From positions 62,001-126,000 of the forward strand of contig JALNQF010000099.1 of assembly GCA_028456385.1 (NCBI GenBank): a stretch of DNA of 64,000 nucleotides, in the 5' to 3' direction. Below are positions 1-64,000 of this stretch, piece after piece. The DNA is from Ophiosphaerella korrae (taxonomy: Eukaryota > Ascomycota > Dothideomycetes > Pleosporales > Phaeosphaeriaceae). The position numbers were made by a program, and so were the translations under genes. Position 1 is the stretch's first letter, and the number at the start of each line of letters is the position of its first letter. Below the pieces are notes generated by a model that searched no databases, was not told the origin of the DNA, and saw only the letters and a program-made list of their open reading frames with translations.

Positions 1-819
1 TTTGTTAAGAGACGTGCTTTTGCGTTGGGCTTAACAGCGTTAGGTGCATGCTCTGGAGGCGTCATCTTTCCTGTGATTGTTCAGCAATGCCTACCGCGTT
101 TTGGATTCCCATGGACCATACGCATCATTGGTTTTATAATGCTTATAACCAACATGGTTAGCATCGCCTTATTTCGTACACGCCTACCCCCCCGTAAGAC
201 CGGGCCGGTCGTCGATTGGGACTCCTTCAAAGAGACACCGTACTCACTATACTGCACCGGCATGTTCTTCTGCTTTTGGGGCTTGTACTTTGCCTTCTTT
301 TACATTGGCTCGTACGCACGAAACGTCTTGGGCGTCAGCTACCAGCAGTCGATCAACCTGCTGCTCGTGCAGATCTGCATGGGCTTTGTATTCCGGTTGC
401 TACCAACATACTACGCGGACAAGGTTGGAAGCCTCACTGTGCTGACTCCATTCGCGTTCGTCTGCAGTGCCATGATGTTCGCCTGGATTGGTATCAAATC
501 CGTCGGTGCCTTGTACGTGTTTGCAGTCATTTACGGATCTGGCAGCGCCGTTATTCAGGCCCTGTGGCCCGCAGCCATAGGCTCGGTTAGCAGAACCCCA
601 GATCTCAAGAAAACAGGGGTGAGAATGGGAATGGCATTCACTATCGTGAGCTTTTCTAGCTTCACCGGCCCACCTTTGGCGGGCGCATTGATTCAGACGC
701 ATAACGGGGATTACACATATGCAAACATCTGGGCGGGCGCTTCCTTCTTTGTAGGCGGATTATTCCTTGTTGCAACGCGCATTTCATTAGTAGGCTGGGA
801 TTGGAAAGCGCGCATATAG
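1..819 (+). CDS. MFS transporter, monocarboxylate-like, 3' part (5' end outside window)
   Basis: The frame is open from base 1 to a stop at 817-819, so the start lies to the left of the window. About 272 residues remain, roughly the C-terminal 60% of a 12-helix major facilitator. Visible hydrophobic helices include FVCSAMMFAWIGI and IWAGASFFVGGLFLVATRI. The polar loop with LPPRK, followed by WDSFKETPYSLYC, matches the central cytoplasmic loop of fungal monocarboxylate-type (MCT/SLC16-like) MFS proteins. By family it should move small organic acids or similar solutes across the plasma membrane; the substrate cannot be read from sequence. No intron is needed in this part. The protein ends with a short basic tail (WDWKARI), and the next gene begins 300 bp downstream on the same strand. 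Confidence 0.85.
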   Translation, partial: FVKRRAFALGLTALGACSGGVIFPVIVQQCLPRFGFPWTIRIIGFIMLITNMVSIALFRTRLPPRKTGPVVDWDSFKETPYSLYCTGMFFCFWGLYFAFFYIGSYARNVLGVSYQQSINLLLVQICMGFVFRLLPTYYADKVGSLTVLTPFAFVCSAMMFAWIGIKSVGALYVFAVIYGSGSAVIQALWPAAIGSVSRTPDLKKTGVRMGMAFTIVSFSSFTGPPLAGALIQTHNGDYTYANIWAGASFFVGGLFLVATRISLVGWDWKARI

Positions 820-17143: not shown

Positions 17144-19093
17144 TCATGCGGTATCTCTCCCAATGCCCGCTTTGTACCTCGCCAAACACCTTTCCCTCGC
17201 AAACTTGTGTTCAACAATTGGCTTCGGATATTTGTTCTTCTTCGCCACCTCGGCCCCTTTCTTGTCTTCATACGGGTTATGTATGGCCTTGCCCTGCACG
17301 TCTTTCAATTCTTCCACCCACGTCCGAATAAAGTCGCCGTCCTCATCAAACTTCGCGCTTTGCAGCCATGGATTGAACACACGGAAGTACGGCTGCGGAT
17401 CAACACCGGTGGACGACGAAAAGCCCCAGCCTCCATTGTTTGCCGCGAAGTCCCCATCAATGAGGTGCGTGATGAAATACTGCTCGCCGAGACGCCAATC
17501 GAGGAGCAAGTGCTTCGCTAAAAATGAGGCGGTTATCATGCGGAGACGGTTATGCATGTATGCTGTTTTGTTCATTGAGCGCATTGCGGCATCGACAATA
17601 GGGTAGCCCGTGCGGCCTTCTGCCCAGGCGCGGAAGTGAGATTCATTGTATTCCCATTCAATGTTTGTGTATTCGAATTTAAAAGGCTTGTTCATGCTGA
17701 TGCGTTATTAGCGGGCTGGTTTGAGCAATGTTTTCAGCATTGCTTACCAGATGTAGGGCCAATGCACGAGTACATGGCGGTAAAAGTCTCTCCAGGCAAC
17801 CTCTGATATCCACCCCCGAATACCTTCTACGCCGCCGTCCAGCTTCTTTGATGAATTTACATCTCGCGCCATTCGCACGCTTGTTCGTGCTGCCAAGGTT
17901 CCAGCGGCGTGATGTACACTGACACGTCCTGTACTATTTTTACTAGGGAAATTGCGCGTTGCTTGGTATTGCCCGACTTTTTCTGTCAGGAATCGTTGAA
18001 GGCGGTCAAGTGCTGCTGCTTCGCCCGAAGGCCAGAGAGCGCGAAATCGCCTCTTTTCGTCATCTGTTAGGCTTTTCGACACTGGAAGCCCTGGAACTTG
18101 GGCATCGAACAAGGCTGGGAACTTGGCTCGGAAATCGGCTGGGTTTTTGGTAGGCATTGGTCGCTCATTGAGCAGATTTGGATGCGCATGTAGGTAAGCA
18201 ACCCACTGTCGATACCAGGGGGTGTATACTGCGTACTGCTTGCCTCCACCTGTCTTCAGACTGCCTGGTGGAACCACACAATCATCATGACGTGGATCAA
18301 AATTGATGCCAGCGTCCAGCGACAATCGAACAAGTCGCTCTTCTCGCCGCAGCTCATCAGGCTCGTACTCGAGGTTGCAATATACGTCCTTTGCCTGCCA
18401 TTCTTGTGCCAACTCTACCAACCGACTCGTCACATTCTTTCGCTTCGATATCGTCTCGATGTAAAGTGGGATGTTGAGTTCGTTCAATTCCTCTTTCAAC
18501 AGCGCCACAGATCGCAGCTCGAAGTCGCACTTCGCCGGACTAACAAGATGCGCTTCCCAGTCCTGCGGACTCATGATCCATACTCCGATCACACCGACGC
18601 CTTTTCCCTTCGCCAGCTCCGCTGCTTTCGATAATCCGGTATTGTCTCGAACACGCAGGTCGCGCTTGAACCAGTGTATGACGGCATTTCCGTGTCCTCC
18701 GACCTTGCCTTGCCGAATCGCCTCACGCTTGTCTTTAGTCTTTCGCAGAGTGTCGTTTAGAATCTCCATTGGCCGTGGTACCTCATCCGCATTATATAGC
18801 GCGGCGCGTTCGTTGCTCATCTCGGCCGGGTAGTACCTTCGGTCCACGATGCCTGCTCTTTCCTCTGGCCGCGAGTGATCGAATGTTTCGTCTTTGACGG
18901 CTTCGCCTGGCGCGCCATTTTCTTTAATCCTCGCGATAAAGTTTGTGGGAGGTGCTTCTTTCTTGAATGCCTTCGGTACGGGTTTGGACATGCGCGAACG
19001 TTTATTTGGCAGATCTCCTGAGACATCGGTGTATTCGCTAGCCGAGGCCGCATTCGGAGGTCTGGAGGACCTCAGTTTTCGTTTTGGTGGCAT
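17144..19093 (-). CDS. phr1: DNA photolyase, class I CPD type
   Basis: Two exons on the minus strand, 19093-17748 and 17696-17144, with a 51-nt intron, give 632 residues. The basic N-terminus (MPPKRKLRSSR) is a probable nuclear signal and is followed by a disordered region to about residue 130. The N-terminal alpha/beta antenna domain follows (AVIHWFKRDLRVRDNTGL). The FAD-binding helical domain has WREFYRH-like WRDFYRHVLVHWPYI, the junction C-MNKPF, GRTGYPIVDAAMRSM, MHNRLRMITASFLAKHLL, and DGDFAANNGGWGFSSSTGVD leading to PQPYFRVFNPW. These residues bind FAD and the cyclobutane pyrimidine dimer. The enzyme repairs UV dimers using blue light. An in-frame ATG 33 codons upstream (19192) could add an Arg-rich, mitochondrial-like leader. 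The next gene upstream diverges, 1.8 kb away. Confidence 0.96.
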
Positions 19094-20314
19094 ATTCAAT
19101 GCACGTCTGAGGGCTCTATGTGAGTATCTAGTTGTTCTGAACACTTCCAATGGTAAAAAAATAGCAGAGCTGAGAGTTTTGGGTGCGCCCACTTGATCGC
19201 CTTTAGGACACCGGGTACGTCAGGGATGCATCAAACGATGTTGTTTATCACAAGCATGTATACTGATAGTAAAGCAAAGGTTCTCATTTATCAAGGTTCT
19301 GTTTGTAATTGGAAAAGGCTTTATACCCCCTGACGCAACGCGCTGAACATGTGCGATCGCGTGTGGAAGGGGTCCGATCGATGACGCAGATGGTTCCTGA
19401 ATCGCCGCCCTCCAGATCGCGGACACGATAAGCGAGGCTCACTCTCTCCACCCTTGCCGTCAGGCACATTGCCTTCTCCACCCTCATGTGCTTGTGCACT
19501 TACATAGGTATGAACCTAGTTTGGAGTTGAGGAGGGTCTCATCGCCTTTATGTCCATTGTTGGCCGCACAACATGATTGGCAGCGTGCCTAAGTATTGCC
19601 CGCATGTCATCACCGCAGCCTTCCTGTCATCATCACTAGCGTGTCTCGTGCATAAGTCCTGCTCACGCAACTCGATGCATCAGGATGGAAGTACTGTAGG
19701 TTTAGTAACGCTTCGCTGGCATTTGTTATACAGGTCGAGGATTATGAGGCGAAATGCGCTTGGAGTTCGGGTACAAAGACAACGGAGGCATTTGCTGCCT
19801 CGGGGATCCTAAATTAGTTCACACTTACACGCTTGCTATTATGAGAAGCATAACAAACTTTAAATTTCCAGGCTCCCAGGACCCGTGCGAGGGACTTCGC
19901 GAAGGCGTGGATTTAGCCTGGATAACGTAAAGAGCGGCATCAGTGCAACTAGGTAGAGGCCCCAATTTTTCAGTCAGCCTCGCATTCGAAACGAAAGGTC
20001 TCGCAAGATTAGGGTTTCCGCCCCATGCAGCGGATACGACCAATCGGCCCCAGAAGCTTACCATTAGCGAATTAGCCCTCGTACTTGATATTAAACTTCC
20101 CAGTTCCTGCCCTTGACCTATTTTTGATGTTCGAGTGGTCGCCGAATTTTCGCATCTGGTACCTGGGCAAGAAGGTAATTAGGGTTATTCACGAGACATG
20201 AGGTTAAGCTATGTTTATCCATGTGGAGTTGAGATCTCGTTTTGCACTACGCGAGCCATATCCAGAAACACATCTGTGTTGCACGTGGGAAACCGAAGAC
20301 TATGTACCACGCTT

Positions 20315-29259: not shown

Positions 29260-32172
29260 TCAATAAAGGCTCTTGCGCAACCCCCCTTTGCTCTTTCCGT
29301 CCCGCCAGATGCAGCACACACTCATGCTCTCGCACCAGGCCTGTGCCTGCCAGGCCTCTAATTCCTTCTCCACAGTCAAAACAAAGTTTTCCCCCTCGAG
29401 CACACTTAGTACTTCGCCGCCCGTTGCTTTCATGTTCTTGTTCCATGTTTTGATCTGGAGCTTGGTAGCCCGCTTGTGCGTACGGATGTTGGTGGCGGAA
29501 TTTAAGTACGACGTGAAATCTTCGAGGACGATGGGGTCGTACATGAGTATCTTCTCGTGCCAGCTGGGCCCCTTGGGGTCTGTAGTTTGCTGGAGGGATC
29601 GTACGTGCGAAGTAATCAAAGGGAAAATGTGAGGTTTGATAGCACCCCAGGTCAGGTGCGCAACAGGTGTGCGATGGACAGGTGTCAAGGATGAGTCTCT
29701 AAGGGTGGAGACATGTTTGCTCGTCTTACAAGACGGTTCGATGTGTAACGGTAATGGTTCCAAGTCTTGTGTTTTGCGCACACGAGGTGGTGTGGGTGAG
29801 AGGGCGGCCATGATCTCATCTTCTGAATCGAGTATTTCATCAATGTCGACGAAGCGGCCCGAACCTTTCGATGGCGTTGCGGGCGGGGCGGACGCGCTCT
29901 TCTTCGGCGATGTTTTCGCAGTCGAAGGGATCGCTGATTTCAAACTTGGAGGAAGACCACGGCCTTTTTTAGGTTGATTAGTCGCAGTTCCTGGTGAAAA
30001 TGCTGGTGGCTGTGGCTTTGGGGGTGAGGATGTCGTCGGGTTGGTTTGAGGCAGGACTATTTTATGAATATCGGTGAAAATATTCTGAGATGTTGCATTC
30101 TGATTTGATGGAGGAGGCTGGAAATCAAAGTCATCAATATCTTCGAATATAGCATCCTTTGGTGTGTGATGAGCAGCTGTGGGCTGAGCGCTCGGAATTG
30201 CCTGTGAGGCTTTGTGCATCGAACGAGGCGGTGTTGGCCGGTCAGATGATATGGTGACCGCTTGAACGATATCAACATTATCAATATCTAAAAATGGAGA
30301 TGATGCCGCTTTTGGCTCGTCATTCGTGCCGTGCGTGAGCAGGGGGAAGTCCTGCGTTCGATCAAAATCTGCAATATCGATATCTTCTAGTTGTTCGAAC
30401 AAGCCACCCCCGACATCTCTAGAGCTTGCATTCCACAGGCCGCGCTTGCCCATAGTCTTCTCCAGCATGGGCCAGCGCGGTGGCGGTGCGAGCGGCTGGT
30501 CAAGTAAGTTACTTGATTCTTCTTCTGACTCTTTGAGAGCGAATTGTAGTTGGCGCACCATTGATGGAGACTCGTCGAGAGCAAGTTGACTCGATGTGCC
30601 AAATAGCATGTCTTGCTTGTTCAGTCGCAGCAATGCCGCTTCAGGGCTGAGTAACTTTTCAGCCGCAAGCTTGGGTTTTGTTGACGACTTGGATGACGCT
30701 TTTTTGGGTTTGGCCTCTGGTTTAGCATTCTCAGCGCCAGGCTTCGGCTTTGAGCGCTTCCGCACTGGTTTCTTTGGAATTACATTATTGTTAGGCGCGG
30801 TGAGATCGTTTAAGGGTGCTTTGGTGACCGTCACTTGGGGTTCGAAGAGATTGCAAGTCTCATTGGCAGTAGTGGCATTGTGGGCCTGATATTGTTCTGT
30901 GGCTATGTCCGTAATGGTTCGCGCTTTTTTCTTGGGTGCTCGACCCTTTTCTGGAGACGAGTTGCGGGAGATGGTCTGGTTGGTAGGAACATCGACAAGC
31001 TCAACTCGCCGTCGCTTGATCGGTGCCATAGTTGTTGTTGTTGTTGTTGTTGTTGTTATGGTGGTGGTGGCGAGCTGCGTCGAGGATTGCGCATATGCAA
31101 AGTTTGAGACTAGGTGGGTGAATTCTCCATTGCTGAGGCCTGGCCCTACTTGTTTGTTCTCTTTGCCGGTCGAGTCTGTGAAGGGACTTGGTATTGTTGT
31201 ATCTTTAGGCGGCGTCCAGTCTCGTCTTCTCGATACTGCTTCGTCCAAGTCTAGGGACACCACTACTGAGGGTTTAGGTGGACCTAGCTTCGGCAATCGC
31301 TTTTTCTTAGATTGAGGGGCCAATTGTTCTTCTCCTGGTGGTGCGCCTTCTGTGTTGGTAGATTGATCATTCGCTGCCGAATCATCGCCCTTCCCAGTGC
31401 CTTGCCGAGAATGTGCAGACTCAGCGGATCCATCCTCCCGTTGCGACTTTCCGGTGGTTTTCGTGGCCTCTCTCGGCTTTCTAGCCCTCGCCTTTTTCGG
31501 CACCTGGTCTGCACCCTCACTAGTAGCTTGCCCCTTCTTTGTACGTGGCTTTCGTGGTTTGACCAACTTTCCTGGTTTCGATGCCGTGGCTGTGACCTCG
31601 ACGGCGGACTCGGCTGCAGCCTCTGCGCCCTGATCTGCAAAGTAAGGTGAGAATTTGGGTGTTGGAAGTCGTAGTTCTGGGTCTTGTGTTGGGTTGGGTT
31701 TATCTGCGGGTGGTTTCCGAGCTCGCGGTTTTGGTTTCGGCTTTGCATTGGCGTCCACCACCGGTGCTGCCGCAGCATGTTTCCTGGGTTTCCTGGATTT
31801 TTTAGTTGCTGTAGCTTCCTCCGAGTCCCCGAGTGAGCGTGTGCGCAATTGCGCTGGGCGTGCCTCCTCGATTTCCTCATCGAGCTGACGTGCAAAGTGC
31901 TCAGAGCGTACCAGACTGCCGATGGTGGCAAATCCTCTCATTGTGTCAGGGGGAAGGGCAGCCTTTCGTGAGCCTAAAGCCGACGCGCCGGGGGTCTCCC
32001 TCTGAGGGCCAGCTGGTGGGGAAAGTGCTAGGAGTGGCGATGCGGGCATTGCGACGCGCCGCGGGGAGCGTCTAGGGCTGCCATTGAAGGGAGGCGAAGG
32101 CGAAGGAGCATACAGATCAGGAGCAGGCGGGGAGGAGGAGAGAAAGACTATGTCGAAGGAGGTGCCCGCCAT
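29260..32172 (-). CDS. slx4: SLX4, structure-specific endonuclease subunit
   Basis: A single exon encodes 970 residues from MAGTSFDIVFLSSSPPAP, the N-terminus typical of filamentous-fungal SLX4. Most of the protein is disordered and basic, with many KPRKPR/ARKPR motifs, a Thr homopolymer encoded by a GTT microsatellite (on the plus strand about 31,032-31,060), and acidic patches such as DIDEILDSEDEI. The C-terminus carries the conserved domain that binds SLX1: ILMYDPIVLEDFTSYLNS, then AWCESMSVCCIWRDGKSKGG. SLX4 is the scaffold that activates the SLX1 nuclease to cut branched DNA such as 5' flaps and Holliday junctions, in the nucleus. An ATG 42 codons upstream (32298) is also in frame but gives an atypical extension. 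Confidence 0.88.
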   Translation of the reverse strand: MAGTSFDIVFLSSSPPAPDLYAPSPSPPFNGSPRRSPRRVAMPASPLLALSPPAGPQRETPGASALGSRKAALPPDTMRGFATIGSLVRSEHFARQLDEEIEEARPAQLRTRSLGDSEEATATKKSRKPRKHAAAAPVVDANAKPKPKPRARKPPADKPNPTQDPELRLPTPKFSPYFADQGAEAAAESAVEVTATASKPGKLVKPRKPRTKKGQATSEGADQVPKKARARKPREATKTTGKSQREDGSAESAHSRQGTGKGDDSAANDQSTNTEGAPPGEEQLAPQSKKKRLPKLGPPKPSVVVSLDLDEAVSRRRDWTPPKDTTIPSPFTDSTGKENKQVGPGLSNGEFTHLVSNFAYAQSSTQLATTTITTTTTTTTTMAPIKRRRVELVDVPTNQTISRNSSPEKGRAPKKKARTITDIATEQYQAHNATTANETCNLFEPQVTVTKAPLNDLTAPNNNVIPKKPVRKRSKPKPGAENAKPEAKPKKASSKSSTKPKLAAEKLLSPEAALLRLNKQDMLFGTSSQLALDESPSMVRQLQFALKESEEESSNLLDQPLAPPPRWPMLEKTMGKRGLWNASSRDVGGGLFEQLEDIDIADFDRTQDFPLLTHGTNDEPKAASSPFLDIDNVDIVQAVTISSDRPTPPRSMHKASQAIPSAQPTAAHHTPKDAIFEDIDDFDFQPPPSNQNATSQNIFTDIHKIVLPQTNPTTSSPPKPQPPAFSPGTATNQPKKGRGLPPSLKSAIPSTAKTSPKKSASAPPATPSKGSGRFVDIDEILDSEDEIMAALSPTPPRVRKTQDLEPLPLHIEPSCKTSKHVSTLRDSSLTPVHRTPVAHLTWGAIKPHIFPLITSHVRSLQQTTDPKGPSWHEKILMYDPIVLEDFTSYLNSATNIRTHKRATKLQIKTWNKNMKATGGEVLSVLEGENFVLTVEKELEAWQAQAWCESMSVCCIWRDGKSKGGLRKSLY

Positions 32173-35100
32173 CCTCAGCCGCGCAATGAGCTTAGGGACT
32201 GCCAAAGCGGCAGTTCCCTCGAGTTGAGGTCGTGGCGGGGTGGTGGGGAGGGACCACCATCGGTTGATGGGGAAGGAACGTCCCAACTTTGGACTCAAGA
32301 TAGACTAACACCATCTCCCCCTACACCATCGCCTCAACCCCACCACCACAATCACCGTAACCCAACATGGCCACATCTCCTCAGTCTACTTGCGCCCATC
32401 TCTTTTTACCACTGTATGTTGGTCCTCGAGTCTCACTAGCTCCCTTCGCTTTTTCGAGCGATGCTGGGTAGGCCATGGTGAGAATTGACGTCTGCATTCT
32501 TGCCCACGAAGACTCACGTTGTGAGGCTTGGCTGCAAAGCATGAGATAGCCCTTCCGAGCATCTAAGGTGGCTTCTGCCATATTCCTGGCCACTTGTCGC
32601 TACATTGTTGTAGTGGCTTGCGTGTGAATGGCCTTGAGCGGTTGCTGGGGGCAGTCGTCTGCCTTTGCCGTGCACACACGGCAAAATCTCAACACCAACT
32701 CCGCACACTTACTTGGATCTTGAGTATCCAACTCTCTCAGAATCCCTTGCAAGTATCCAAATTTCCCTTCAACATCTCACGAGCCATCGAGGCCACTCGC
32801 TGGTCGCTCCGCTTTCTCACGTGCCACCACCGATGCTGCACCATTTGAGCATGGTGCTGCTTTGCCACAGCGGAGACGGCAGAGACAGCGGAGCCGTGAT
32901 AATTGTGCTACAATTCTATCATGCTGATAACCAAAGTAGTATCGATGTGCCTGACATTGTGTTGGCACATAGTCGCGGACTTGGTCACGCTCAACTGGAC
33001 CTTGCAGCACTTAAGGACATAACAATCATCAGTCGAATTTCAGCGCGAGCTAGGGTTGAGCGTCGTACCCCATTGGCAAAAGTACATTGGCTCAATTAGG
33101 CTGATGAGCCTCCTCGACGACATCGGAATGGGATATGCGAGGAAAGCAACCTCCAATGCAGCCTCAAGCGACAGCAGCAGCGACGTTGGCCGCACCGCGG
33201 ACAATTTCACCGTCTACCATGAGGCTGCAAAAACAAGGATTTTGCCTTGGGCAGGCAACAACAGGATGAATCCTGATCAAGATCTCATTGGAATGACTTG
33301 ATGGCGACAATCGATGTCGCTGCGGATGGTTGAGGATTCCTTGCTTCATCGCCAGCGAGAGGGTCAGGCGACTACCAAAGCCGAGCACTTGATCGGCTTA
33401 TGGATCATTTGTGTGTTGTTGAAACACCACTCATAATCTTCCATGACGACGTTGATGAGAAGCAGTCCGGCATCCTCTCATCGCAATCCGCATGGCTGAG
33501 CTAGGGATCCCCCATCGACATAGAGTTGTGAAATCGTAAGACATAACTTGATAGGATATGAGCTTGGCCATCGGCAAATGTATGGTCCGACATTCGTGGG
33601 ACCAAGGACCAATTGTACCCCTTGTCGGGTGACATTATAACCTCTCGTGGAGTTGACGAAGCGGTGAGTATTGCAGCACAGGATGAAAGGGTGTATGCTC
33701 AAAAATCCACGGCTGTAATCCGTATAACATCTTGCGAATCACTCTTCAAGTCTTCAAAACAACCATTAACGCTTTTTTTTTGTCAAACATTGCCACCATA
33801 ATTGGGAGTTGATGTCGCCGTGGCGTCGATGTTCTCTACATCAGCTTTAGTATATGCGATGAAGCATGAAGCAATTCCGATTTCATTTGCAGTACATACC
33901 TTATGCCGTCCACAGCTGGATGACATTACTTTTCAGCAAGTACCAGCGCGATGCGTAATCACCGACATCACTATTCGTGCAAAAGGGCACGGCTTGGTAC
34001 AACTGTATATTCGCTACTTGTCTTTTGCCGGCGGCCGCGGCAGGGCTGAGTTCTCGGAGCTTTTCAGGAAAGGATCTCACAGATCGAGGTCTATTCCTCT
34101 CGTAAAGACCAAAACCTTAACAACTCCAACAACTATCCCCACAATTGCCAGCATCCTTCTAGCTTCTTCAGCTCGTACCTTTCTTCTGAAATCCTGAACC
34201 AATATGAAGTATTGATGTACATTCCAAGACCGATCCAAGGGGGCTGGCCATAATCCCTTTGCTGCCAGCTATCTCCGGGGCAATCCCCCGATAACCGACC
34301 TCAGACTATCATGGTGGCAGTCACTCCGCATCCCTTGGAACTGGTCAGGATGTTAACGTTGCCGCAAATGGATGAGTTTGTGTGGTGGAACTTAGCGTTG
34401 TTGATCTCGATATGGCAGTACCTGCTCGCATGGCTTTCCGGTTTCCTTTTCTCCAATTTTGTAAGGGAAGAGGAGTTCCTGTTTCCAAATCAGCAACAAA
34501 TCTCGACAACGCATATGCACAAAGCTTGGTAGCTATCCGAAAAAATGTGTCAGCCTGTAGCATCCCGCTCAGGAAGGTGTCTCGTCTGGGAGGATGTTCG
34601 ATCACTGGCTAGTACTCAAAGCCAAGATCGAAATCTTGTTGAATACCTTCACTCTGCGAGTTCGAGAAAGTCATTGACATGCCATGGAGAAAAGGGCTAC
34701 GCCCACTGAGCCAAGCTCCGTATCTCGTCTCGCGCATTCACGCCATCAAATCAGGACTTACCATCTTCCAATATAACGGCATATCCATAATGCCAGTTAG
34801 CTGCCCGATATTTACCTTGCTATGTTAGTATGTCAGTTCGTTTCGGGATGTACCACATAGTAGAACCGCCGAGGTATGAGTCTGGACCTGGCGGGATGTG
34901 TAGAAACACAGTGGTTGGTGTATGAAGCTAAAGGCCGAAGTCTCAAGCTCAACCCACGATAATCTGCGATGTATGGATTGTCCCCGACATACCATGGAGG
35001 GTAATGCCAGTTTTCCAATCCAATTGCTCAAACATAAAATGTACCACGTATCTGTTCACCGCCCCGCTTTAGCCTCGCGCTGGGCAGCAATTTGGTTGGC

Positions 35101-53159: not shown

Positions 53160-55669
53160 CTATGCTTCAAGCCAGTCTGCCGCGGCATCAATCGACCGAC
53201 TCGCAATTCCAATCCACTTCTTCAGCGCCGCATCATCCTTCTCGTCAATCCCTTCCACAATGCCTGGGAACGTAGCACCAGCATACCCAGTCCACTTCCC
53301 TGGCGCAAAGACAACATGCTTGAACCAAGGCCGGCCATCAAGCCCCGCCGGATACAAGAACTTCCGCTCCAACAGCTTGTATTTCGTATTGATGTTACGA
53401 ATTGCGAGGTAAAGCTTGAGTTTCTCCCATGGCTTCCACCATGGTATGTCGTTGTGGTAGTATTCATACAGAAGCTGGGCTGCAGTGGCGTCGTGGATCG
53501 TGGCGGCAAACCGGAAATGCGATACAGAACGCTCAAGTGATCCCCAGAGATCGCTTTCTTCGATGCCGTGTCCTGCTTCATGCGCCTTTTGTTTGACACT
53601 GCTGACATATCTCTCCAGGCCAATACTGTACTCAGTAGCGTTGAGCTGCAACACCGGAGTCTCCACGAGGCGCGCGGCAACCAGTGCCCATACCTTCGCA
53701 ATTGCAGCATGATACTCGAAACTTGGATCTCCGAAGCGTTTCATCCAGTCGAATGAGTCATAATTGCTGTGGTAATGATATATGGCTGAGTTGGGCCCAA
53801 AAGTAAAGCCCATGTCAATGGATGGTATGCCGGCGAAATCCTGGAATGCGGTGAAATCGCTACCCGAACCCATGGTGGCAATGTGTTTGTCCCATACATC
53901 GTACACAGATTGGCCATGGACAGTCTGATTCGGGGAGGAGACCAGTTGCACTACAAACAGTGAGCCAGCTGACTGAGATATAGGTTAGGGAAACTTACAG
54001 GCTTCCTGGACAACTTGATTTAGCAAAGGTGCCGCTGATAACTTGAAGTGCGGTCCGTTTGTCCCTACATCCACGTTCAAGTACGCGACTGCAGAACCTG
54101 ATAGCCAAGGAAGATATTCCTCGACCCATTCCGTGCTGCCGACTAACCCATACTCTTCGCCATCCCAGCTAGCGAGCACGATCGTCCGCAGTGGCTTCCA
54201 GCCGTTCTGCAACGCCAGACCAAAGCTCCTGATCACCTCATTAAACGCCGCAGAGCCGCTATTCGGGTCCCCAGCTCCTCCGGCAATCCAAGCATCACGA
54301 TGGTTTCCTAAAACGATGACCTCATCTGGCAGTGTACCATTGATGATTCCGATGACATTCCAAAGCGGAGTTGTTACATACTCTTGTTCGTTGACAAGAT
54401 TCAAGAGTGCGCTATCTGGGGAAGGCCCGATGTTGTATTTGACACCTTTGTAGCCCAAGCCACCGCCCTGCCAGTGCTCGTTGAACGAAGAAGCTTTTGG
54501 TCCGTGACCATTAAGTGCCTGAAGGAGAGGAACAGCATCTTTATATGAAATGGGAATGGAAGGTATGTGTGGAATGGCATGGTCGACAGGCTGACGTGGC
54601 GCTCCAGGTTTCGAAGGGTAGCCAGGTGTGGTAGGATCGCCCGGAGCAAAGCCTGCACCATCGTCAGTCCCTGCCATCGACCAAAAAATGACATTTACTT
54701 ACTCAGAAATTGAACGCTGCCGCGTTGCACACTGCTTGGCTGTCTAGCCGGTCCCTGAGGATACGTCGCTTTGCCGTTCCTCTCAGTAACATCTCCATCA
54801 TCCCCTGGATCCGAGTAGATGACGATACCGACCATGCCTAATTCTTGCGCGCGCTTGACTTTCAAGCCTCGGAAGACGCCTCCATACTTCGCCAGTGCGA
54901 TCTTACCAGCCAGACTAATATTTGTTGCCCGCAGCTCCTCGAAGTCCTTATAAGTACCGTAATTGACGAAGACATATGGTGCTGTGACATTGCCGGATGC
55001 ACTGTAGCCATGAAATGTGGGGATACGGTCGGTGAGTTTGCTCGTTTCATCTTCATCTAAGACGTCTTCTTCCAGGCACGCTTCGAACTGCACCTTCCAT
55101 TCTCCTTCGATTGTTGGCAGGGCAACCGAATGCTCATCGCCCTTCTTACTCCTTTCCAAGAGCGCCAATCGATGGCCCTTTGGATAGTTGATGTAGACAT
55201 CATAGTCCACAATCAGACTGTTCTCGATGCCAAAGTCTCGCCACCTATCCAATGTCCAGAGCGCTTGGCTGAGATTCTTTCCGGCCAGATGTGGCCCGCT
55301 GGTATAGTATCTACTCCATTCCCTTGCTTGATTTGCATCTGGAGCACTCAGAAGAATGCTCTGCAGCTCTTCATATTCCAGCGCCGTCTTGCCCAGCCAT
55401 CCTGCTGGTATTCGTGTGGTGGATAACAGCGAGTGTTCCGAGGCGGACGTGGGTTCGTGGGAGTGGTCAAATGGGCCAAAGCCGAATAATAGGACTGCTG
55501 CTATGCCTCCGATGAGCACGACTGTGGTAAGAAGTGTGGTGCAGAAGAAGCGTAGTCGATGATGTGGATACCGATCGCGGTGAGGCCGGATGTCTACGCG
55601 CTGGATGAGAGGCGTGCGTTCGTCGGGCATGTCGCACGCAGGTTTCTCATTGCTCGCAAGAAGCTGCAT
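53160..55669 (-). CDS. M28 peptidase, glutamate carboxypeptidase II / Vps70-like
   Basis: Three exons on the minus strand, 55669-54703, 54652-53999 and 53950-53160, give 803 residues, close to yeast Vps70. Introns are 50 and 48 nt; the first uses the acceptor at 54653-54654 after a ctgac branch because it restores VQFL-S-FAPGDPTTPGYPS. Layout: cytosolic N-terminus with ERTPLI, a transmembrane anchor (TTLLTTVVLIGGIAAVLLFGF, residues about 44-64), PA domain (NYGTYKDFEEL, GKIALAKYGG), then the zinc peptidase core with ligands in GNHRDAW, DPNSGSA and DGEEYGL, and a later ligand in YHYHSNYDSF. The C-terminal dimerisation domain completes it. All metal ligands appear present, so it should be an active type II membrane carboxypeptidase of the vacuolar/endosomal system. 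Confidence 0.92.
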
Positions 55670-56757
55670 GAATAGTCAAGTTTTCAGGCAGAGCAATCGT
55701 CGCAGACTTTACAGAACGGATCGAGGCTCCACGAGCTTTACAAAGTAACGGTGTGCAGTCCGGTCGCATGGCGTCATCAAGCCATTCGGATAGCGAATAC
55801 GAGCGGGGCGGATCATTTGGCATGCAGGGTGCGGGAGGGAACCACCAACTTCCCCATGGGCTGCCATAGGAAGCACACCCATGCGGCTAAACTTAAATTT
55901 AACATCTCTGGAAAACATGCATAGACTTGGTACACTATTGTCCAGTCCACAAACTATGCGACAGCATTTTACCCGGCTACGCGACACTCAATCTGGCATT
56001 GAGCTATCATACTCTTCCATCGCCAAACGATACGACAAACAATTTCTACGTATTGCTTTCTCTCAGCTCTCGGACCCCTTGCTGTGCATGCTCTGCCCCG
56101 CCTCTTCGCTCATCCCACTGGGATCAAGTCATTTTTATTGAGTATTCTCTTTGCGCAACAGCCGATAGCATTCCGTTAGAGAGATCTAGAGTACTTGTTG
56201 ATTTTAGAAACCCCTCCCCGGAGCCATGCCACAAAGGAATCGAGGATACCCTATACTTTGTTATTTTCTCTGCAAGCACAGGGCGGATTATGGCCGAACA
56301 TCATTGCACGGGCTATCTGGCAACTGCGCAATCTCTATCCACACCCCGCCAAATCCATAATTGCTGGCAACTATTGATGGTTCTCTATCCGGCATCGATA
56401 CGATAACCTACAAGTTCCTGCCATTCCTCGCCTTACCATATTATATTGACCTCATTCAACATACAAAGGGTTAGCCCCATCTCCTTTGTTCGATTCCTCG
56501 AGGCTTTGTATCGGAGTATTGGGGCATAGTACACCCGTTCACAATGCTCTTTGTGCGCCAGGCAAGTAGAGACGCTGCTTTTCTGTCACTGTGGAACAAC
56601 CTTTTATTCAAATATTCTGTACTTCGGTATATATTATGTACCAGCTTCGTCGAATTGGCCCTGCCACTACATACGATTCTATCACGCAAACATTTACAAG
56701 GTTACATATCAATAACATCCTCACTTCACGTTTCAGCTATCATCAGCACGACAAGAT
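55670..56757. other. Divergent intergenic region
   Basis: Promoter region of the peptidase (minus) and RING-like (plus) genes. Overlapping frames here show no gene-like content. Confidence 0.55.
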
Positions 56758-57603
56758 ATGTCTGACCTCGATTACCAGAATATCGCCACCACGGTCTGGC
56801 CAATCCTTCTTGGTGTTACTGGGGATGCTTGCGCAATGTGCAAGGCCACCCATGTCCCGATCTATGACCTTTCATGCCACGATTCAGATGACTTCTACTG
56901 CCGCGATTGTCTTACAAAAACATGGTACAACGCCCAAGACGAAGTAGTTCGTTGCCCCTCATGCAGCCAAGACTGTGGCTTTGTGCATCTCAATTCATCA
57001 GAAATCTTTTACATCAACCGTGACTTCTGCGACGATGAGGCTTTTGATAAGATCCGCAACCAACCTGAGGTCATGAACAATCAGATCAGCTTCACTTCAA
57101 ACGAGGCGGTTGCGTTCCTCCAGCATGCTTACAGCCTCGTCGAGGATCAGATTCTCGACCCCTCTGAACTTGGTGGCTTACCTGGGCACCAGACCGCACA
57201 TAACGAAGATTCCCTCGGGTCAAGCTTGAAAAACAATTTCATGTACAACGCCGTCTTCCACCAAGTCACCGCGGCGCCAAAGATGATGACTACTCCTCTC
57301 GAACTTGAAGGAGATGTGTTGGAACTACTCAATCAAACCATGCTAGACTTCATAAAGGTCAAGTATCATGATCCACTATTAGCTAGCAGTATTGACCTGA
57401 GCGATGACAAAGCGGTTGCTGAAGAGGGTGTGTGCCTCGTATCACAGTTTCAAGACGAATATATCCCGAAGATCACCGAAAACTGGATCTCCGTTGTGAA
57501 CATCTGGGTCGATTTGTTGGCCTGGAGGCACATCGAGCGTACTGCGCCTGTGGATGGAGGCGCTGCTGAGCGCCACCGGGAATCACTTGTCATATGCTCT
57601 TAA
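56758..57603 (+). CDS. RING-like zinc-finger protein
   Basis: A single exon encodes 281 residues. The N-terminal third has a Cys/His array: C25-x2-C28, C40-H41, C48-x2-C51, then C66-x2-C69 and C73 (CAMCKATH, LSCHD, YCRDCLTKTW, VRCPSCSQDCGF). This resembles a RING finger, but the adjacent Cys-His pair departs from the canonical spacing, so E3 ligase activity is only possible. The rest is mostly helical and acidic without a recognised domain. It ends HRESLVICS. The family looks fungal-specific. It lies 1.5 kb upstream of the AAA-HET gene on the same strand; nothing in the sequence proves a functional link. Confidence 0.75.
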   Translation: MSDLDYQNIATTVWPILLGVTGDACAMCKATHVPIYDLSCHDSDDFYCRDCLTKTWYNAQDEVVRCPSCSQDCGFVHLNSSEIFYINRDFCDDEAFDKIRNQPEVMNNQISFTSNEAVAFLQHAYSLVEDQILDPSELGGLPGHQTAHNEDSLGSSLKNNFMYNAVFHQVTAAPKMMTTPLELEGDVLELLNQTMLDFIKVKYHDPLLASSIDLSDDKAVAEEGVCLVSQFQDEYIPKITENWISVVNIWVDLLAWRHIERTAPVDGGAAERHRESLVICS

Positions 57604-59106: not shown

Positions 59107-62100
59107 ATGGCAACCGTCATTTCCGAGAAGACAAGCCCGCATCCCTCCGTCGATATGGCGACGTCGAATGGTGTTATTCTAGAACCAACGGACAAAAACT
59201 TCTCCCAGGCTCCCCTCCGTCTGCCAGAATGGTTCCTTCAAAACTGCGTGAAAACTTCAGAAGAATTGAATGAGCACAATCATCTTTTAACTATCTGCAA
59301 CAATGGCCAATCATTTCCGAAGAGTGCAGGTCTCCCAGTACAAACGGTCTCAAATCCAGAGACCTATATGATTGAATCAGCCATGTATAACAAACTCATT
59401 GATTTTGCCTCAGTCAATGTGTTACCTGGAGGGCATGGTTGGGCGAATAACAGCATTGATGGCAAAAAAGCTTTCGTCAACGATGGAGCGATGCTTAGGT
59501 TTCCTGGTGATACCAAGAGCCTGCCGTTTCTCACTGCTGTGATTGAGTATTTCGCGAAGGACATTGGTGCAGACTTGATCACGATGAGTTATGATGACTT
59601 TGAGGACTTGTGTGAGCACTTTGCTATCATGCAAAAAAGGAAGAAGTTGATGATGTTGACTGCCGCATCAAATTGTACTTCGATCAGAATCACCTTTCTG
59701 AGGATAAAGAAGATAAAACCCATACACTCGAAGAAATACTTGGGCCAGAACCGGAACAAGAAACGTATTCAGGGTTAGACGATGGCCTTTTCTTCTCCAA
59801 GAAAGGAAAGAATAAGAAGAAGAGTAAGAAGAAGACATTGGTCTGGGATGATGAGGAGGTGAATATGGAAGTGGGCGTAGAGGAGGTGAATTTTGAAACG
59901 GAGGATCAGACGACACAAACTAATTCTAGTCCTACTGTCGACGACAAAGCCTTTCCATTCAGTCTTATCCTTCAATCCACAGCAGCGAAAGGCGAGCTAA
60001 AACAAGGACCGAAGAGCCTTCGAGCGTATTGCCATCCACTTATAATACACATCCGGGGTGTACATAAATTCGTGAAGGATAAAGTCCAGCATAGCATCCT
60101 CATACAACTTCGAAACTATGTGCAAATGTGGGTGAAGCGAGGGAATGTGCTTTTGATTGCCACCGATTGCAATTCAGGAAGTGATCCCTATCAATCAAGC
60201 TTGAAGGACTCGTCAATACTAAATACCATCGGCCGCAATCCTGCGAGGAGAGTCACACGAATTGTTCCAGTCAACTCACAAGCACAGAGATCACTCCTCA
60301 AAAAGGACGACGGGAGAGAGATTGAACGAGAAAATATCCGAAAATTACAGAGACAAATACGGCAATATCCACTGATTGACAAGAGCTCATTCCTATTGCA
60401 ACCAAACGCTGTATGGTGTCTTGATGGAAGCCAGGCGTCGAAGCTATTACGGAAGAAGCTCTTGGATAGCGATGAATCTGAAGAAGCTGCAAGCAGCATC
60501 AGTAGAAAATTGGAAGTTAGCCACATCGAAAAGGTGCTTGTGCAAGTTGATGAACACATCAAAGCCTTAGATAATTGGAACCAATCTAGCGATGGTGATA
60601 AATGGTTGAGCTTTCCTCTCAAAGCACAAAGGGCTATTGCAGAGATTGAGAGCAAGAGATCGGAATACAAGTACGAGTATAATATGTTGAGCCTCCTTGT
60701 AAATCCCGGTAAGCTTTACTTCTCACAAGCATAGTTCTTGGGCTAATACTAATACTATCCAGATAATGTGGAGCAGGCTTGGGCCGACATCGAACTCGAC
60801 GAGCAGGTCACGAAGGCCATCACTCAGATGGTTGCCCTTGCCATATCTGGCCGCCAAGAGGCATATGGAATCCTCAAGACTGGTCGTATCGGAGACGCTC
60901 TACTCTACGGTCCGCCCGGAACGGGTAAGACACAACTAGCGCGTGTGCTTGCTCGAGAAACTAGATCTAATGCTGTTATGATTCACGCCTCAACTGCTGA
61001 GATCGAAGAGAAGTGGGTAGGGGAGACTGAGAAAATCATTAAAGCAATATTCAACCTTGGCCGGATGTTGTCTCCATCAATTATCTTCATCGATGAGGCG
61101 GACGCCCTTTTCAAAGCCCGTGGTCGCGATGATCGTGCATACGAACGCACCCGCATAAGCCAGCTTCTAGCTGAGGCAGATGGAATGGCACGGGCTTCAG
61201 CTGGAAATCAGCCATTCTTGTTACTCGCCACGAATTTTCCGCATCAGCTTGATAGTGCCGTCTTAAGACGTGTTCCAGGACGGTTATTTATCGGAATGCC
61301 AACTCTTGATTCTCGAGAGCGTATATTTAGCATATCACTTCGAAATGAGGTCCTCGATGAGGCCCTAAATCTACGAGAACTTGCGGCTCGCACGAAGGGT
61401 TATACTGGCTCTGATATCCAAACGGTGTGCGTCCAAGCGGCACTTATCTGCCAGGATGAGCTTGGCAATCAAGATGGAAAGATGAAGCGAGTGCTTCGAC
61501 ATACACACTTTCAACAAGCACTCACGCGCAGCGGTCCGACTGTTTCACGAAAACTCTTAGGAGACATCAAAGAGTTTGCCGCCGAGTTTGACCCTGCAGC
61601 GGTAGCAAAGTTAAACTTTGTTGAACCAGATACTTGGGGCCAGTTGAATAGCCAAAAGGAGAATGTTGTAGCGACAATTGCGTCCGAAGGTGGTGAATCA
61701 AAACCGGTGTCAGAGACACAGCTTGATGAAATACTCGAGCAGCCTTGGAATCCTAGCTCTGAAGATACCAGCGATATCAATCGTGGAATTGACCTTGTTC
61801 AACAGAATATCGTCAACAATCTGTTTGGTCGAGAGCATTACTCTTATCAGTCTCTTTCTGTTTCAGATGACGAAATAACTATATGGGATATTTATAGGCC
61901 AATACCAAGGGTCCGCCTTCTCCATTTATTCCCAGGCAAAGACCTCGAGCCTCTGCAAGGTTCACTGCAAATTTCAAGTCCCTTCCCACAACTAAGCCTC
62001 GGACGGGATCAGGCGAGCGAAAAAGACTCTAATATCGTGTACGAGGCTGTTTCTTACTGTTGGGGCGATGGTACGGACAAAGAAGACATTATCTGCAATG

Positions 62101-64000
62101 GAAAACGACAACAAGTAACCACCAGTCTTGCGAGGGCACTTCGAAGAGTTCGTCTCCCCGACAGGGTCCGGATTCTCTGGGCTGACGGCATTTGTATCAA
62201 CCAAAATGACATTGAAGAGCGTACCAAACAGGTCATGTTAATGGCAGCGATCTATTCACAAGCCGAACGTGTGCTATGTTGGCTGGGCGAGGATGGGGGG
62301 GACCATGCCAAGCATACGTTTGATATCGCAAAGCGATTCTGTATGAAGGTCGAGCGTCCACCGGGTGATGGGGAATACACTGAGATGAAAGGTGAAAATG
62401 GAGAGACTTTCCATGCCGACCGTTATCTTCATTCCGCACTCAACATCGTTGACGATGAATTTGAGCAGGAATTGAAAGCAAATAAAGTCCATATGACATC
62501 GTTATTCAAGAAATCTTGGTTCACTCGAATGTGGATCCGACAAGAAATAGGCTACGCTCCGAAAGCTTTGGTCTTATGCGGCGACATGGAACTAGATTGG
62601 AACGATCTGGAATGGTTTCGATCTTGGGCTGTTTTCAAATGTCACATCTCGACAGGAGCAACCCGAATGCAACTTGGCAATTTTCGCAATGTGAAATATC
62701 TTGTTAAGAACACTACCAGTTCATTCTTAGACCTGCTGCTTGAATCATCTAGATTTCAATGTACGGAACCTCGTGACAGGATATTTGCCCTGTTGTCTCA
62801 CCCTTCGGCGTATAAGGAATTGAGGACTGGGATAATGAGAAACTACAGCACCGAAGTCGTTGAAGCGATCTCTAACAGGGAAGGGAAAGCCAACATAGAC
62901 GCAAAAACAGACGGTGCATGGAGCGCTCTATGCGCTGATATCAGCATGTTTGCAGCTTCTCTGGCAGAAGAACTTGAAGGTAGCGATCCTTGGAAAGAAT
63001 TTTTCATCAACACCGCTAAAAGCCTCGAAACTTCAAGTATGATGATTGGCGGTGATTACCCAACATGGGATTCACCTGATAAACATCTAGAAAGACTGAT
63101 AGTAAAACAGAGTGAAAGTCGTAAATACCTTGAATCAGCCAGATACTACTTCAACAGAATGTTAGTATCTTATTCTGTTTCAAACAATGAATTTTAGGCT
63201 GACTCTTTTAGGTTAAATAGAAAAAGGCACATCAAAAATGATATAACGCTGGAAGACCAACCCATGTCTTCGAATTCACCGGTTTCCGAAAAACAAGTAG
63301 ACAGTCCGCTTTCCGTTGAAACGGACAATCCTGATGACAACTTTGGCCCAGAAGACAAAAGCATGCATAAGCTTATATCGTTTCTATCTGAAGCCAGAAG
63401 ACTCAACGAACTTGAAAACCCTGCCAAACATCCCCTCTATCGACTTCAACCCATGTCTGGGGATGCAGTCCTCAGCGTTCCAATCATCGAAGCAGATTAC
63501 AGTAGAACCCTCGAAGACATTTATCTCGAAATAGCCTGCCAAATTTTACTTGGTTCCCAAGACCTACGAATCTTATCTGCTGTTGATCATATTGGTAAAG
63601 ATGTAGTTTCTAGAGGTACTTTACCATCATGGGTTCCTCGATGGGACACTCATATCAGTAAGCTCAAGCCCGGCCTCTTAAAATCACCCTCTCGACCCCA
63701 ACCTTGGACAAACAAGATTTCGTTCGGAGAGGCTGTCCAAATTGAAGGGGAGATCTTAAACTGCCGCGGTTTCATTATCGACAGCATAGCATCGACTACT
63801 ACCCCCATATCTCGTAACTCATTCCTGGACTTCGACACACTGTTGAACTTCTGGAAACCTCTGATCTCCTGGCCAACACCCAAACACCCAACAGCAACTG
63901 ATAAACTTAAATTCTACCAGCGTCTCTTAACATTGAACAACGCGGGTAATTCAATTATGAGCGCCCTCGGCATTGGGCCTCATAACGAGAAACGGCTTGC
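59107..64000 (+). CDS. AAA ATPase-HET domain fusion protein (3' end outside window)
   Basis: More than 1,590 residues are visible. The ATG at 59107 is in good context. Coding segments are 59107-59638, about 59639-60708, 60763-63160 and 63212 to the window edge; introns 60709-60762 (ctaat branch) and 63161-63211 (ctgac branch) are clean. Around 59633-59638 (A6) the frame shifts by one, discussed in the findings. N-terminal part: region with FLTAVIEYFAKDIGADLI, a Lys-rich patch (KKGKNKKKSKKK), and PLIIHIRGVHKF with LRNYVQMWVKRGNVLLIAT, as in fungal Msp1-like AAA proteins. AAA core: Walker A GPPGTGKT (60909-60932), pore loop KWVGETEK, Walker B IIFIDEAD (61080-61103), sensor LLATNFP, LRRVPGR. HET domain: YEAVSYCWG (62040-62066), RILWADGICINQ (62169-62204), WFTRMWIRQEI (62517-62549), then the usual post-HET region with LPSWVPRWD. 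HET domains trigger fungal incompatibility cell death. Confidence 0.87.

What the first reader, a model, noticed from the sequence alone, without database searches (positions are those of the whole stretch)
59107..64000. HET cell-death domain fused to a classical, threading-type AAA ATPase
HET domains are best known alone or with NACHT/NB-ARC STAND modules (as in HET-D/E). Here the ATPase has classical-AAA hallmarks: Walker A GPPGTGKT, Walker B FIDEAD, sensor-1 Asn, an LRR-x-PGR Arg-finger region and, notably, a KWVG pore-loop-1 motif that in Msp1/p97-type enzymes grips and threads substrate. A HET effector tied to a probable hexameric unfoldase suggests a different trigger: engagement or unfolding of a protein substrate, perhaps a mislocalised or foreign one, rather than ligand-induced NLR oligomerisation. 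Motifs are seen; the mechanism is inference, and I do not know how widespread this fusion is.
Basis: partly seen in the sequence, partly recalled or inferred. Interest (0 to 1): 0.8.

Follow-up and report, generated by a model that had tools for sequence, protein, structure and literature searches.

The report
Fungal death domain on AAA motor
A fungal gene joins a protein-handling AAA motor to a HET cell-death domain in one protein; the same joining recurs in many fungi, which suggests a receptor-like cell-death switch driven by an AAA motor instead of the usual NLR switch.

Summary
One intron-free stretch of 814 codons (60753-63197) encodes a classical AAA ATPase (PF00004, 1e-28) followed by a HET domain (PF06985, 2e-31). 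No NACHT or NB-ARC model matches. The gene runs 59107 to 64409, 409 bases past the window, and reads as about 1,732 residues with two introns and one apparent frame change near 59,634-59,655.

The fusion is no one-off. Of 211 listed homologues 65 carry both domains, always AAA before HET, in ascomycetes including Podospora and Colletotrichum. In 65 fused rows examined the catalytic AAA residues are nearly invariant; the pore-loop aromatic is kept in 57. The N-terminal region probably holds a second, catalytically dead AAA domain. AAA and HET parts give conflicting trees in four of five tests, so parts were probably exchanged.

Best reading: a fungal HET (TIR-like) cell-death effector driven by a pseudo-AAA/AAA ring instead of a STAND switch. 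Ring, substrate and killing are inferred. Threading as trigger is plausible, not shown; a ring that only clusters HET domains is the main rival. I found no description in print within the searches run. New variant of a known kind.

The parts
59107..60708 (+). Exon 1: N-terminal region, residues 1 to about 534 of the predicted protein. It probably holds a degenerate AAA-like domain (VIA matches span about residues 34-404 of the close relative P0001) with a low-complexity K/E-rich insert. The frame changes between about 59,634 and 59,655.
60709..60762 (+). Intron, 54 nt: GTAAGC ... CTAAT ... CAG
   Evidence: the joined protein matches P0001 across the junction
60763..63160 (+). Exon 2: AAA domain, linker, HET domain and start of the C-terminal region, open throughout
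60900..61292 (+). AAA ATPase core PF00004: Walker A 60909-60932, pore loop 1 61011-61022, Walker B 61086-61103, sensor 1 61233-61235, Arg fingers 61263-61283
   Evidence: (100.6 bits); motif census
61365..61469 (+). AAA_lid_3 (PF17862)
   Evidence: 36.4 bits, cut-off 27.2
62040..62546 (+). HET domain PF06985 (VSYCWG, WADGICINQ, RMWIRQE)
   Evidence: 110 bits, cut-off 22.5
63161..63211 (+). Intron, 51 nt: GTTAGT ... CTGAC ... TAG
   Evidence: protein resumes the match to P0001 after the junction
63212..64000 (+). Exon 3: C-terminal region of the HET part; continues beyond the window to a stop at position 64409 (L009:5510)
   Evidence: 260 of 379 residues identical to P0002

Best explanation
A fungal receptor-like cell-death protein built as dead AAA-like domain, active classical AAA, linker, HET and HET C-terminal region. 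SHOWN: AAA and HET content, order and single reading frame; conserved ATPase residues; recurrence in 65 of 211 listed homologues. SUPPORTED: the dead AAA-like first tier; different histories of AAA and HET parts. INFERRED: the AAA domains form a hexameric double-tier ring like other classical AAA proteins; the dead N-terminal tier recruits a target protein; ATP-driven engagement of that target by the pore loops changes the ring and brings six C-terminal HET domains together on the exit side; clustered HET domains, distant relatives of TIR, start regulated cell death. AAA is the input and timing module, HET an exchangeable output, much as NLRs exchange N-terminal effectors. My estimates: real AAA-HET protein family 0.97; HET acts as death effector under AAA control 0.65; substrate threading is the trigger 0.35.
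Against: No expression, oligomer, substrate or killing data. Pore-loop aromatic absent in 8 of 65 fused rows. Frame change in exon 1 of this very copy. 38 of 103 family rows have no detected HET, so the AAA part also exists without it, though some may be truncated gene models. AAA/HET conflict is not seen in one test: with the partial row P0003 added, p-AU 0.064; and a single clade of all fused HET domains is not rejected in the fuller set, p 0.133. For the N-terminal model Foldseek gave no match at E 0.001 or better (best 0.005, the AAA protein PCH-2), and hhalign gave P 0.02 and 2% probability. The AAA-HET model has pTM 0.47 and its HET part was not fold-searched on its own.
Confidence: 0.5

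Rival explanations
1. The AAA ring is only an oligomerisation switch. Nucleotide or ligand state assembles it and clusters HET domains as in NLR/TIR resistosomes; no substrate is threaded.
For: 8 of 65 fused rows lack a pore-loop aromatic; Podospora P0043 has SRVG. HET is otherwise known in STAND receptors that oligomerise (PMC4986451, PMC12881547, passages).
Against: 57 of 65 keep W/Y/F at the pore position and 64 of 65 the Gly; a pure scaffold would not need this.
Confidence: 0.3
2. The AAA part is a quality-control unfoldase and HET serves as adaptor or regulator, or is the motor's own client, rather than a death effector.
For: Among single AAA domains whose score I saw, Msp1 is the closest solved one, 140.1 bits. 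HET-less relatives exist; one, P0172, is called mitochondrial by its source, as is the HET-bearing P0186, and P0103 has what looks by eye like a mitochondrial presequence.
Against: A HET domain is reported as sufficient to induce cell death when overexpressed (PMC12881547, passage). Fused HET domains fall into several supported groups on one AAA family, though one common clade is not excluded.
Confidence: 0.12
3. This copy is a decaying gene: the frame change in exon 1 removes the N-terminal domain or the whole protein.
For: Two frames overlap at 59,616-59,778 and P0001 reads straight across the place.
Against: No stop in the 1,556 codons after the frame change, good splice signals, AAA and HET motifs intact, AAA and HET among the best kept parts. 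A single wrong base in a draft assembly of 974 contigs could do it.
Confidence: 0.2
4. Artefact: two neighbouring genes read as one.
For: None found.
Against: No stop between AAA and HET; 65 homologues in the same order.
Confidence: 0.02

Closest known systems
HET-NACHT-WD40 receptors of Podospora (HET-D, HET-E, HET-R)
   Same: HET effector joined to a P-loop ATPase in one protein (PMC4986451, PMC12881547, passages)
   Different: Those have an N-terminal HET, a STAND NACHT module and WD40 repeats. Here HET is C-terminal to a classical AAA with Arg fingers and pore loop, and no repeats were found.
BH of Podospora het-B (HET plus lectin-fold domain)
   Same: HET in a non-NLR architecture (PMC10890737, passages)
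   Different: No ATPase is mentioned in the passages seen; HET is N-terminal.
Msp1/ATAD1
   Same: Closest solved single AAA domain among the scores seen, 140.1 bits; RRxP Arg-finger context shared with own-genome L013; W at pore loop 1
   Different: No transmembrane helix, no Trp-Asp motif (window EADG, L013 HWDG), V instead of Y after the pore W; own-genome L013, named Msp1 by eye, falls outside the family, 98/97.
p97/Cdc48
   Different: First tier lacks catalytic residues; CDC48 model 147.6 bits against a cut-off of 802.65; HET appended.
IetA, anti-phage ATPase of IetAS
   Same: Classical AAA in a defence setting with a separate effector (the pairing with a protease is recalled); 99.1 bits to the PADLOC model
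   Different: Far below NCBIfam's cut-off, 99.2 against 510; bacterial, and no HET (recalled).

Membership tests
Classical AAA (PF00004) | Pfam match over cut-off with Walker A, Walker B, sensor 1 and Arg fingers | tested here: met
   motif census
Classical AAA (PF00004) | Hexameric ring with substrate-gripping pore loop 1 | not testable with these tools
   KWVG present at 61011-61022 and aromatic in 57 of 65 fused rows; assembly not tested
HET (PF06985) | Pfam match over cut-off | tested here: met
   110 bits against 22.5, profile positions 1-146 of 146
HET (PF06985) | Cell-death activity | not testable with these tools
   literature only, for other HET proteins
STAND/NLR receptor | NACHT or NB-ARC module | tested here: not met
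   no NACHT or NB-ARC match at E 0.1; nSTAND3 20.1 bits, below its cut-off of 27.2
STAND/NLR receptor | WD40, ANK or TPR repeats on the C-terminal side | tested here: not met
   no repeat family in the ORFs up to 63998 at E 0.1 or in P0001 and P0002 at E 0.001; the last 411 bases of the window's gene were not scanned by themselves
STAND/NLR receptor | N-terminal effector domain | tested here: not met
   HET lies after AAA in 65 of 65 and in the window
Msp1/ATAD1 | N-terminal transmembrane helix | tested here: not met
   highest 19-residue Kyte-Doolittle mean 1.56, at residue 1674; no dedicated TM predictor was run
Msp1/ATAD1 | Trp-Asp motif contacting the Arg fingers (PMC7018516, passages) | tested here: not met
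   window reads AEADGM there, own-genome L013 HWDGL (aligned by eye)
Msp1/ATAD1 | Pore-loop-1 Trp-Tyr pair (PMC7018516, passages) | tested here: inconclusive
   Trp present, Tyr replaced by Val
Cdc48/p97 | CDC48 subfamily model over cut-off | tested here: not met
   147.6 bits against 802.65
IetA | NCBIfam equivalog NF042959 over cut-off | tested here: not met
   99.2 bits against 510
AAA+ fold (N-terminal domain) | AAA alpha/beta fold | tested here: met
AAA+ fold (N-terminal domain) | Walker A Lys, Walker B Asp-Glu, sensor Asn | tested here: not met
   of 21 aligned N-terminal regions 12 cover the Walker A place and have no GK[ST]; 18 cover the Walker B place, none with DE, 9 with D or E at the second position; 20 cover the sensor place, none with Asn there (counted by eye)

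The most novel reading that the evidence does not exclude
A separate, modular class of fungal immune receptor in which a classical AAA motor with a dead first tier senses target proteins by gripping or threading them, and licenses interchangeable TIR-like HET death domains: the AAA counterpart of NLRs, guarding protein quality control or proteins attacked by non-self.
Probability: 0.3. Interest if true: 0.87.

Novelty: new variant of a known kind. Interest (0 to 1): 0.6.

Why it matters
HET domains are among the most abundant fungal domains, and HET proteins lack clearly assigned architectures (PMC10197012, section read). A conserved AAA-HET family gives a tractable input module with mutable, well-understood catalytic sites, so the question how a HET domain is switched on becomes directly testable. 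It would also mean that TIR-like death domains can be controlled by a protein-remodelling motor and not only by a STAND switch.

Tried and rejected
Fusion as artefact: rejected, one open frame and 65 homologues in the same order.

STAND/NACHT module: rejected, no such match.

Msp1 or Cdc48 membership: resemblance real, defining features not met.

N-terminal relatives by sequence: the search with residues 1-560 returned only P0001, so that part seems to evolve too fast for word search.

Profile comparison of the N-terminal part with active AAA: P 0.02 and 2% probability, though Walker B, sensor and following strand fell in register; weak support only.

Single origin of all fused HET domains: rejected at p 0.025 with 11 own-genome HET domains as others, not rejected, p 0.133, with 28. 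So I claim conflict between AAA and HET trees, not a number of separate HET origins. The 28 are a sample of at least 150. One search missed own HET domains on minus strands; one search corrected this. The first HET tree used a strict pattern. HET trees hold 29 fused rows of the first homologue search (short ones and P0003, P0008, P0073 left out) and none of the second.

A test I drop: HET data rejected a nine-row group of the 64-row AAA tree (p 4.7e-7), but the 148-row AAA tree does not show that group and itself rejects it with P0003 added (p 5.6e-5; rows added later lie among them), so it proves nothing. Rejection of one clade of all fused AAA rows (p 7e-6) is also weak news, since HET-less rows nest inside and Colletotrichum gives two AAA rows each. 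The first attempt at the test, did not finish. AU groups were named after seeing the trees.

HET presence on the AAA tree: 22 changes against a shuffled mean of 30.9, minimum 25 in 200: clustered yet labile. HET-less rows may include truncated gene models.

Literature: 10 searches; nothing listed describes HET joined to a classical AAA. Listings were partial for (25 of 32; 12 of 340); two papers that hold both Pfam numbers (PMC4782317, PMC6525431) were not opened. The library holds open-licence PMC papers only.

The organism was not identified. Padloc and NCBIfam libraries are of bacterial and archaeal proteins.

Full report
WHAT IS THERE. The finding is real. One frame of 814 codons, 60753-63197, is open across a classical AAA domain and a HET domain. 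The window lies in a genome of 63.0 Mb in 974 contigs with at least 150 HET matches; 150 of 481 candidates were scored. The gene continues past the window; with the next stretch of the contig it ends at position 64409. Two short introns with normal signals (60709-60762, 63161-63211) give a protein of about 1,732 residues. Exon 1 shows one change of reading frame between about 59,634 and 59,655, where the scan for standard introns listed none; the relative P0001 (Dendryphion nanum) reads straight across it. Whether this is an assembly fault or real damage cannot be told without reads.

HOW WIDESPREAD. Of 211 proteins listed by two searches, 65 carry both AAA and HET by profiles made here, all 65 with AAA first. 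Only the best 120 of 427 and of 6,131 matches were listed, so more may exist. Names include Dendryphion, Bimuria, Kalmusia, Lophiotrema, Stipitochalara, Hyaloscypha, Coleophoma, Cudoniella, Podospora, Colletotrichum, Xylaria, Apiospora, Magnaporthiopsis, Gyalolechia and Squamulea, which by recall span four classes of Pezizomycotina. Colletotrichum P0006 to P0009 have two AAA domains before HET. Across 65 fused rows, the window protein included and one of 66 dropped for a short AAA match, Walker A Lys is kept in 62 with 3 gaps, Walker B Asp in 64 and Glu in 65, sensor Asn in 65, each Arg finger in 64, and the pore aromatic in 57 (W27, Y27, F3; others H3, R3, L1, D1).

HISTORY. In the AAA tree of 64 rows (31 of the 34 fused proteins of the first search with the window, 15 chosen HET-less hits and own-genome AAA proteins) the window protein sits in a 30-row clade (100/99) of mostly HET-fused proteins. 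HET-less P0057 and P0083 are its sister, and the set with mitochondrial-looking P0103 and own-genome L012 lies outside. Own-genome Msp1, Vps4, Rpt, Pex and other AAA proteins (names given by eye) are separated at 98/97. In the HET tree the window protein groups instead with P0004 and P0005 (100/98), whose AAA domains lie outside that clade. Five tests bear on this conflict. AAA data reject window, P0001, P0002, P0004 and P0005 as one clade in 64 rows (p-AU 1.3e-4) and in 148 rows (0.016), but not with the partial row P0003 added (0.064). HET data reject the fused rows without P0004/P0005 as one clade (0.0018 against 30 rows, 0.018 against 3). Parts have therefore probably been exchanged or re-acquired. 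Whether all fused HET domains have several origins is not settled (p 0.025, 0.133). On the 148-row AAA tree HET presence changes at least 22 times, fewer than in 200 shuffles on 103 family rows (mean 30.9, minimum 25). Some HET-less rows may be truncated models.

HOW IT MOST LIKELY WORKS. Shown: the fusion, the intact ATPase residues and the recurrence. Supported: the dead first tier and the module exchange. Reported for other proteins: HET domains induce cell death and are distant TIR relatives (PMC4986451, PMC10197012, PMC10890737 and PMC12881547; passages, and one section of PMC10197012). Msp1 forms hexamers that grip substrate with pore-loop aromatics (PMC7018516, passages). Inferred: the protein forms a double-tier ring, recognises a target with its N-terminal tier, engages it by ATP-driven pore loops, and as a result clusters or frees the C-terminal HET domains, starting cell death. 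The main rival is a ring that clusters HET without threading; the Podospora protein with Arg at the pore position favours that rival at least there. IetA, a bacterial anti-phage classical AAA, matches at 99 bits but fails membership.

NOVELTY. Ten literature searches in the held library listed no paper that describes HET joined to a classical AAA; I opened seven papers by passages or one section and saw no such protein there. The proteins are in public databases with generic names such as Cell division control protein 48 or AAA-domain-containing protein. I call it a new variant of a known kind: HET receptors are known, this motor in place of a STAND switch is not, as far as I could see. On checking, the evidence for module exchange came out weaker than first written (one search test dropped, one search added); interest was lowered from 0.62 to 0.6, other odds stay.

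Noticed in passing
L009:5768-8500, about 0.3-3 kb downstream of the gene (window positions about 64667-67400): Remains of what looks like an NB-ARC/TPR receptor gene on the minus strand, broken into short frames; the TPR part matches PF13374 (2.5e-8), the NB-ARC part was seen only by eye.
   Followed up: partly
L010:1734-2960 (G000:C974, minus strand): A second HET gene (PF06985 117.9 bits, ankyrin match below cut-off) about 6 kb downstream of the HET-AAA gene.
   Followed up: partly
L012 (G000:C213:24928-25626): AAA paralogue, 44% identical, no HET seen in the fetched 3.7 kb by eye; it falls in the set with P0103, which has a mitochondrial-looking N-terminus, and its N-terminal part seems by eye to have the same dead AAA-like domain.
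   Followed up: partly
P0187 and P0166: Relatives with other partners: SH3 before the AAA part in Dendryphion nanum P0187, and PF01425 (amidase, name recalled) listed with HET and AAA in P0166, which may be a joined gene model.
   Followed up: no
P0006-P0009 (Colletotrichum): Two AAA domains with intact Walker A before HET; the pore-loop aromatic is shifted by one (KHWG, KYWG, RYWG) in the second.
   Followed up: partly
whole genome G000: At least 150 HET-domain matches, 150 of 481 candidates scored, several with internal stops.
   Followed up: no
window 53160-55675 (-), 17744-19219 (-), 29260-32304 (-), 1-819 (+): Ordinary neighbours: PA/M28/TFR-dimer peptidase, DNA photolyase, Slx4-like protein, MFS transporter piece.
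   Followed up: no
window 56716-57603 (+): 295-codon open frame upstream of the gene, without Pfam match at E 0.001.
   Followed up: no
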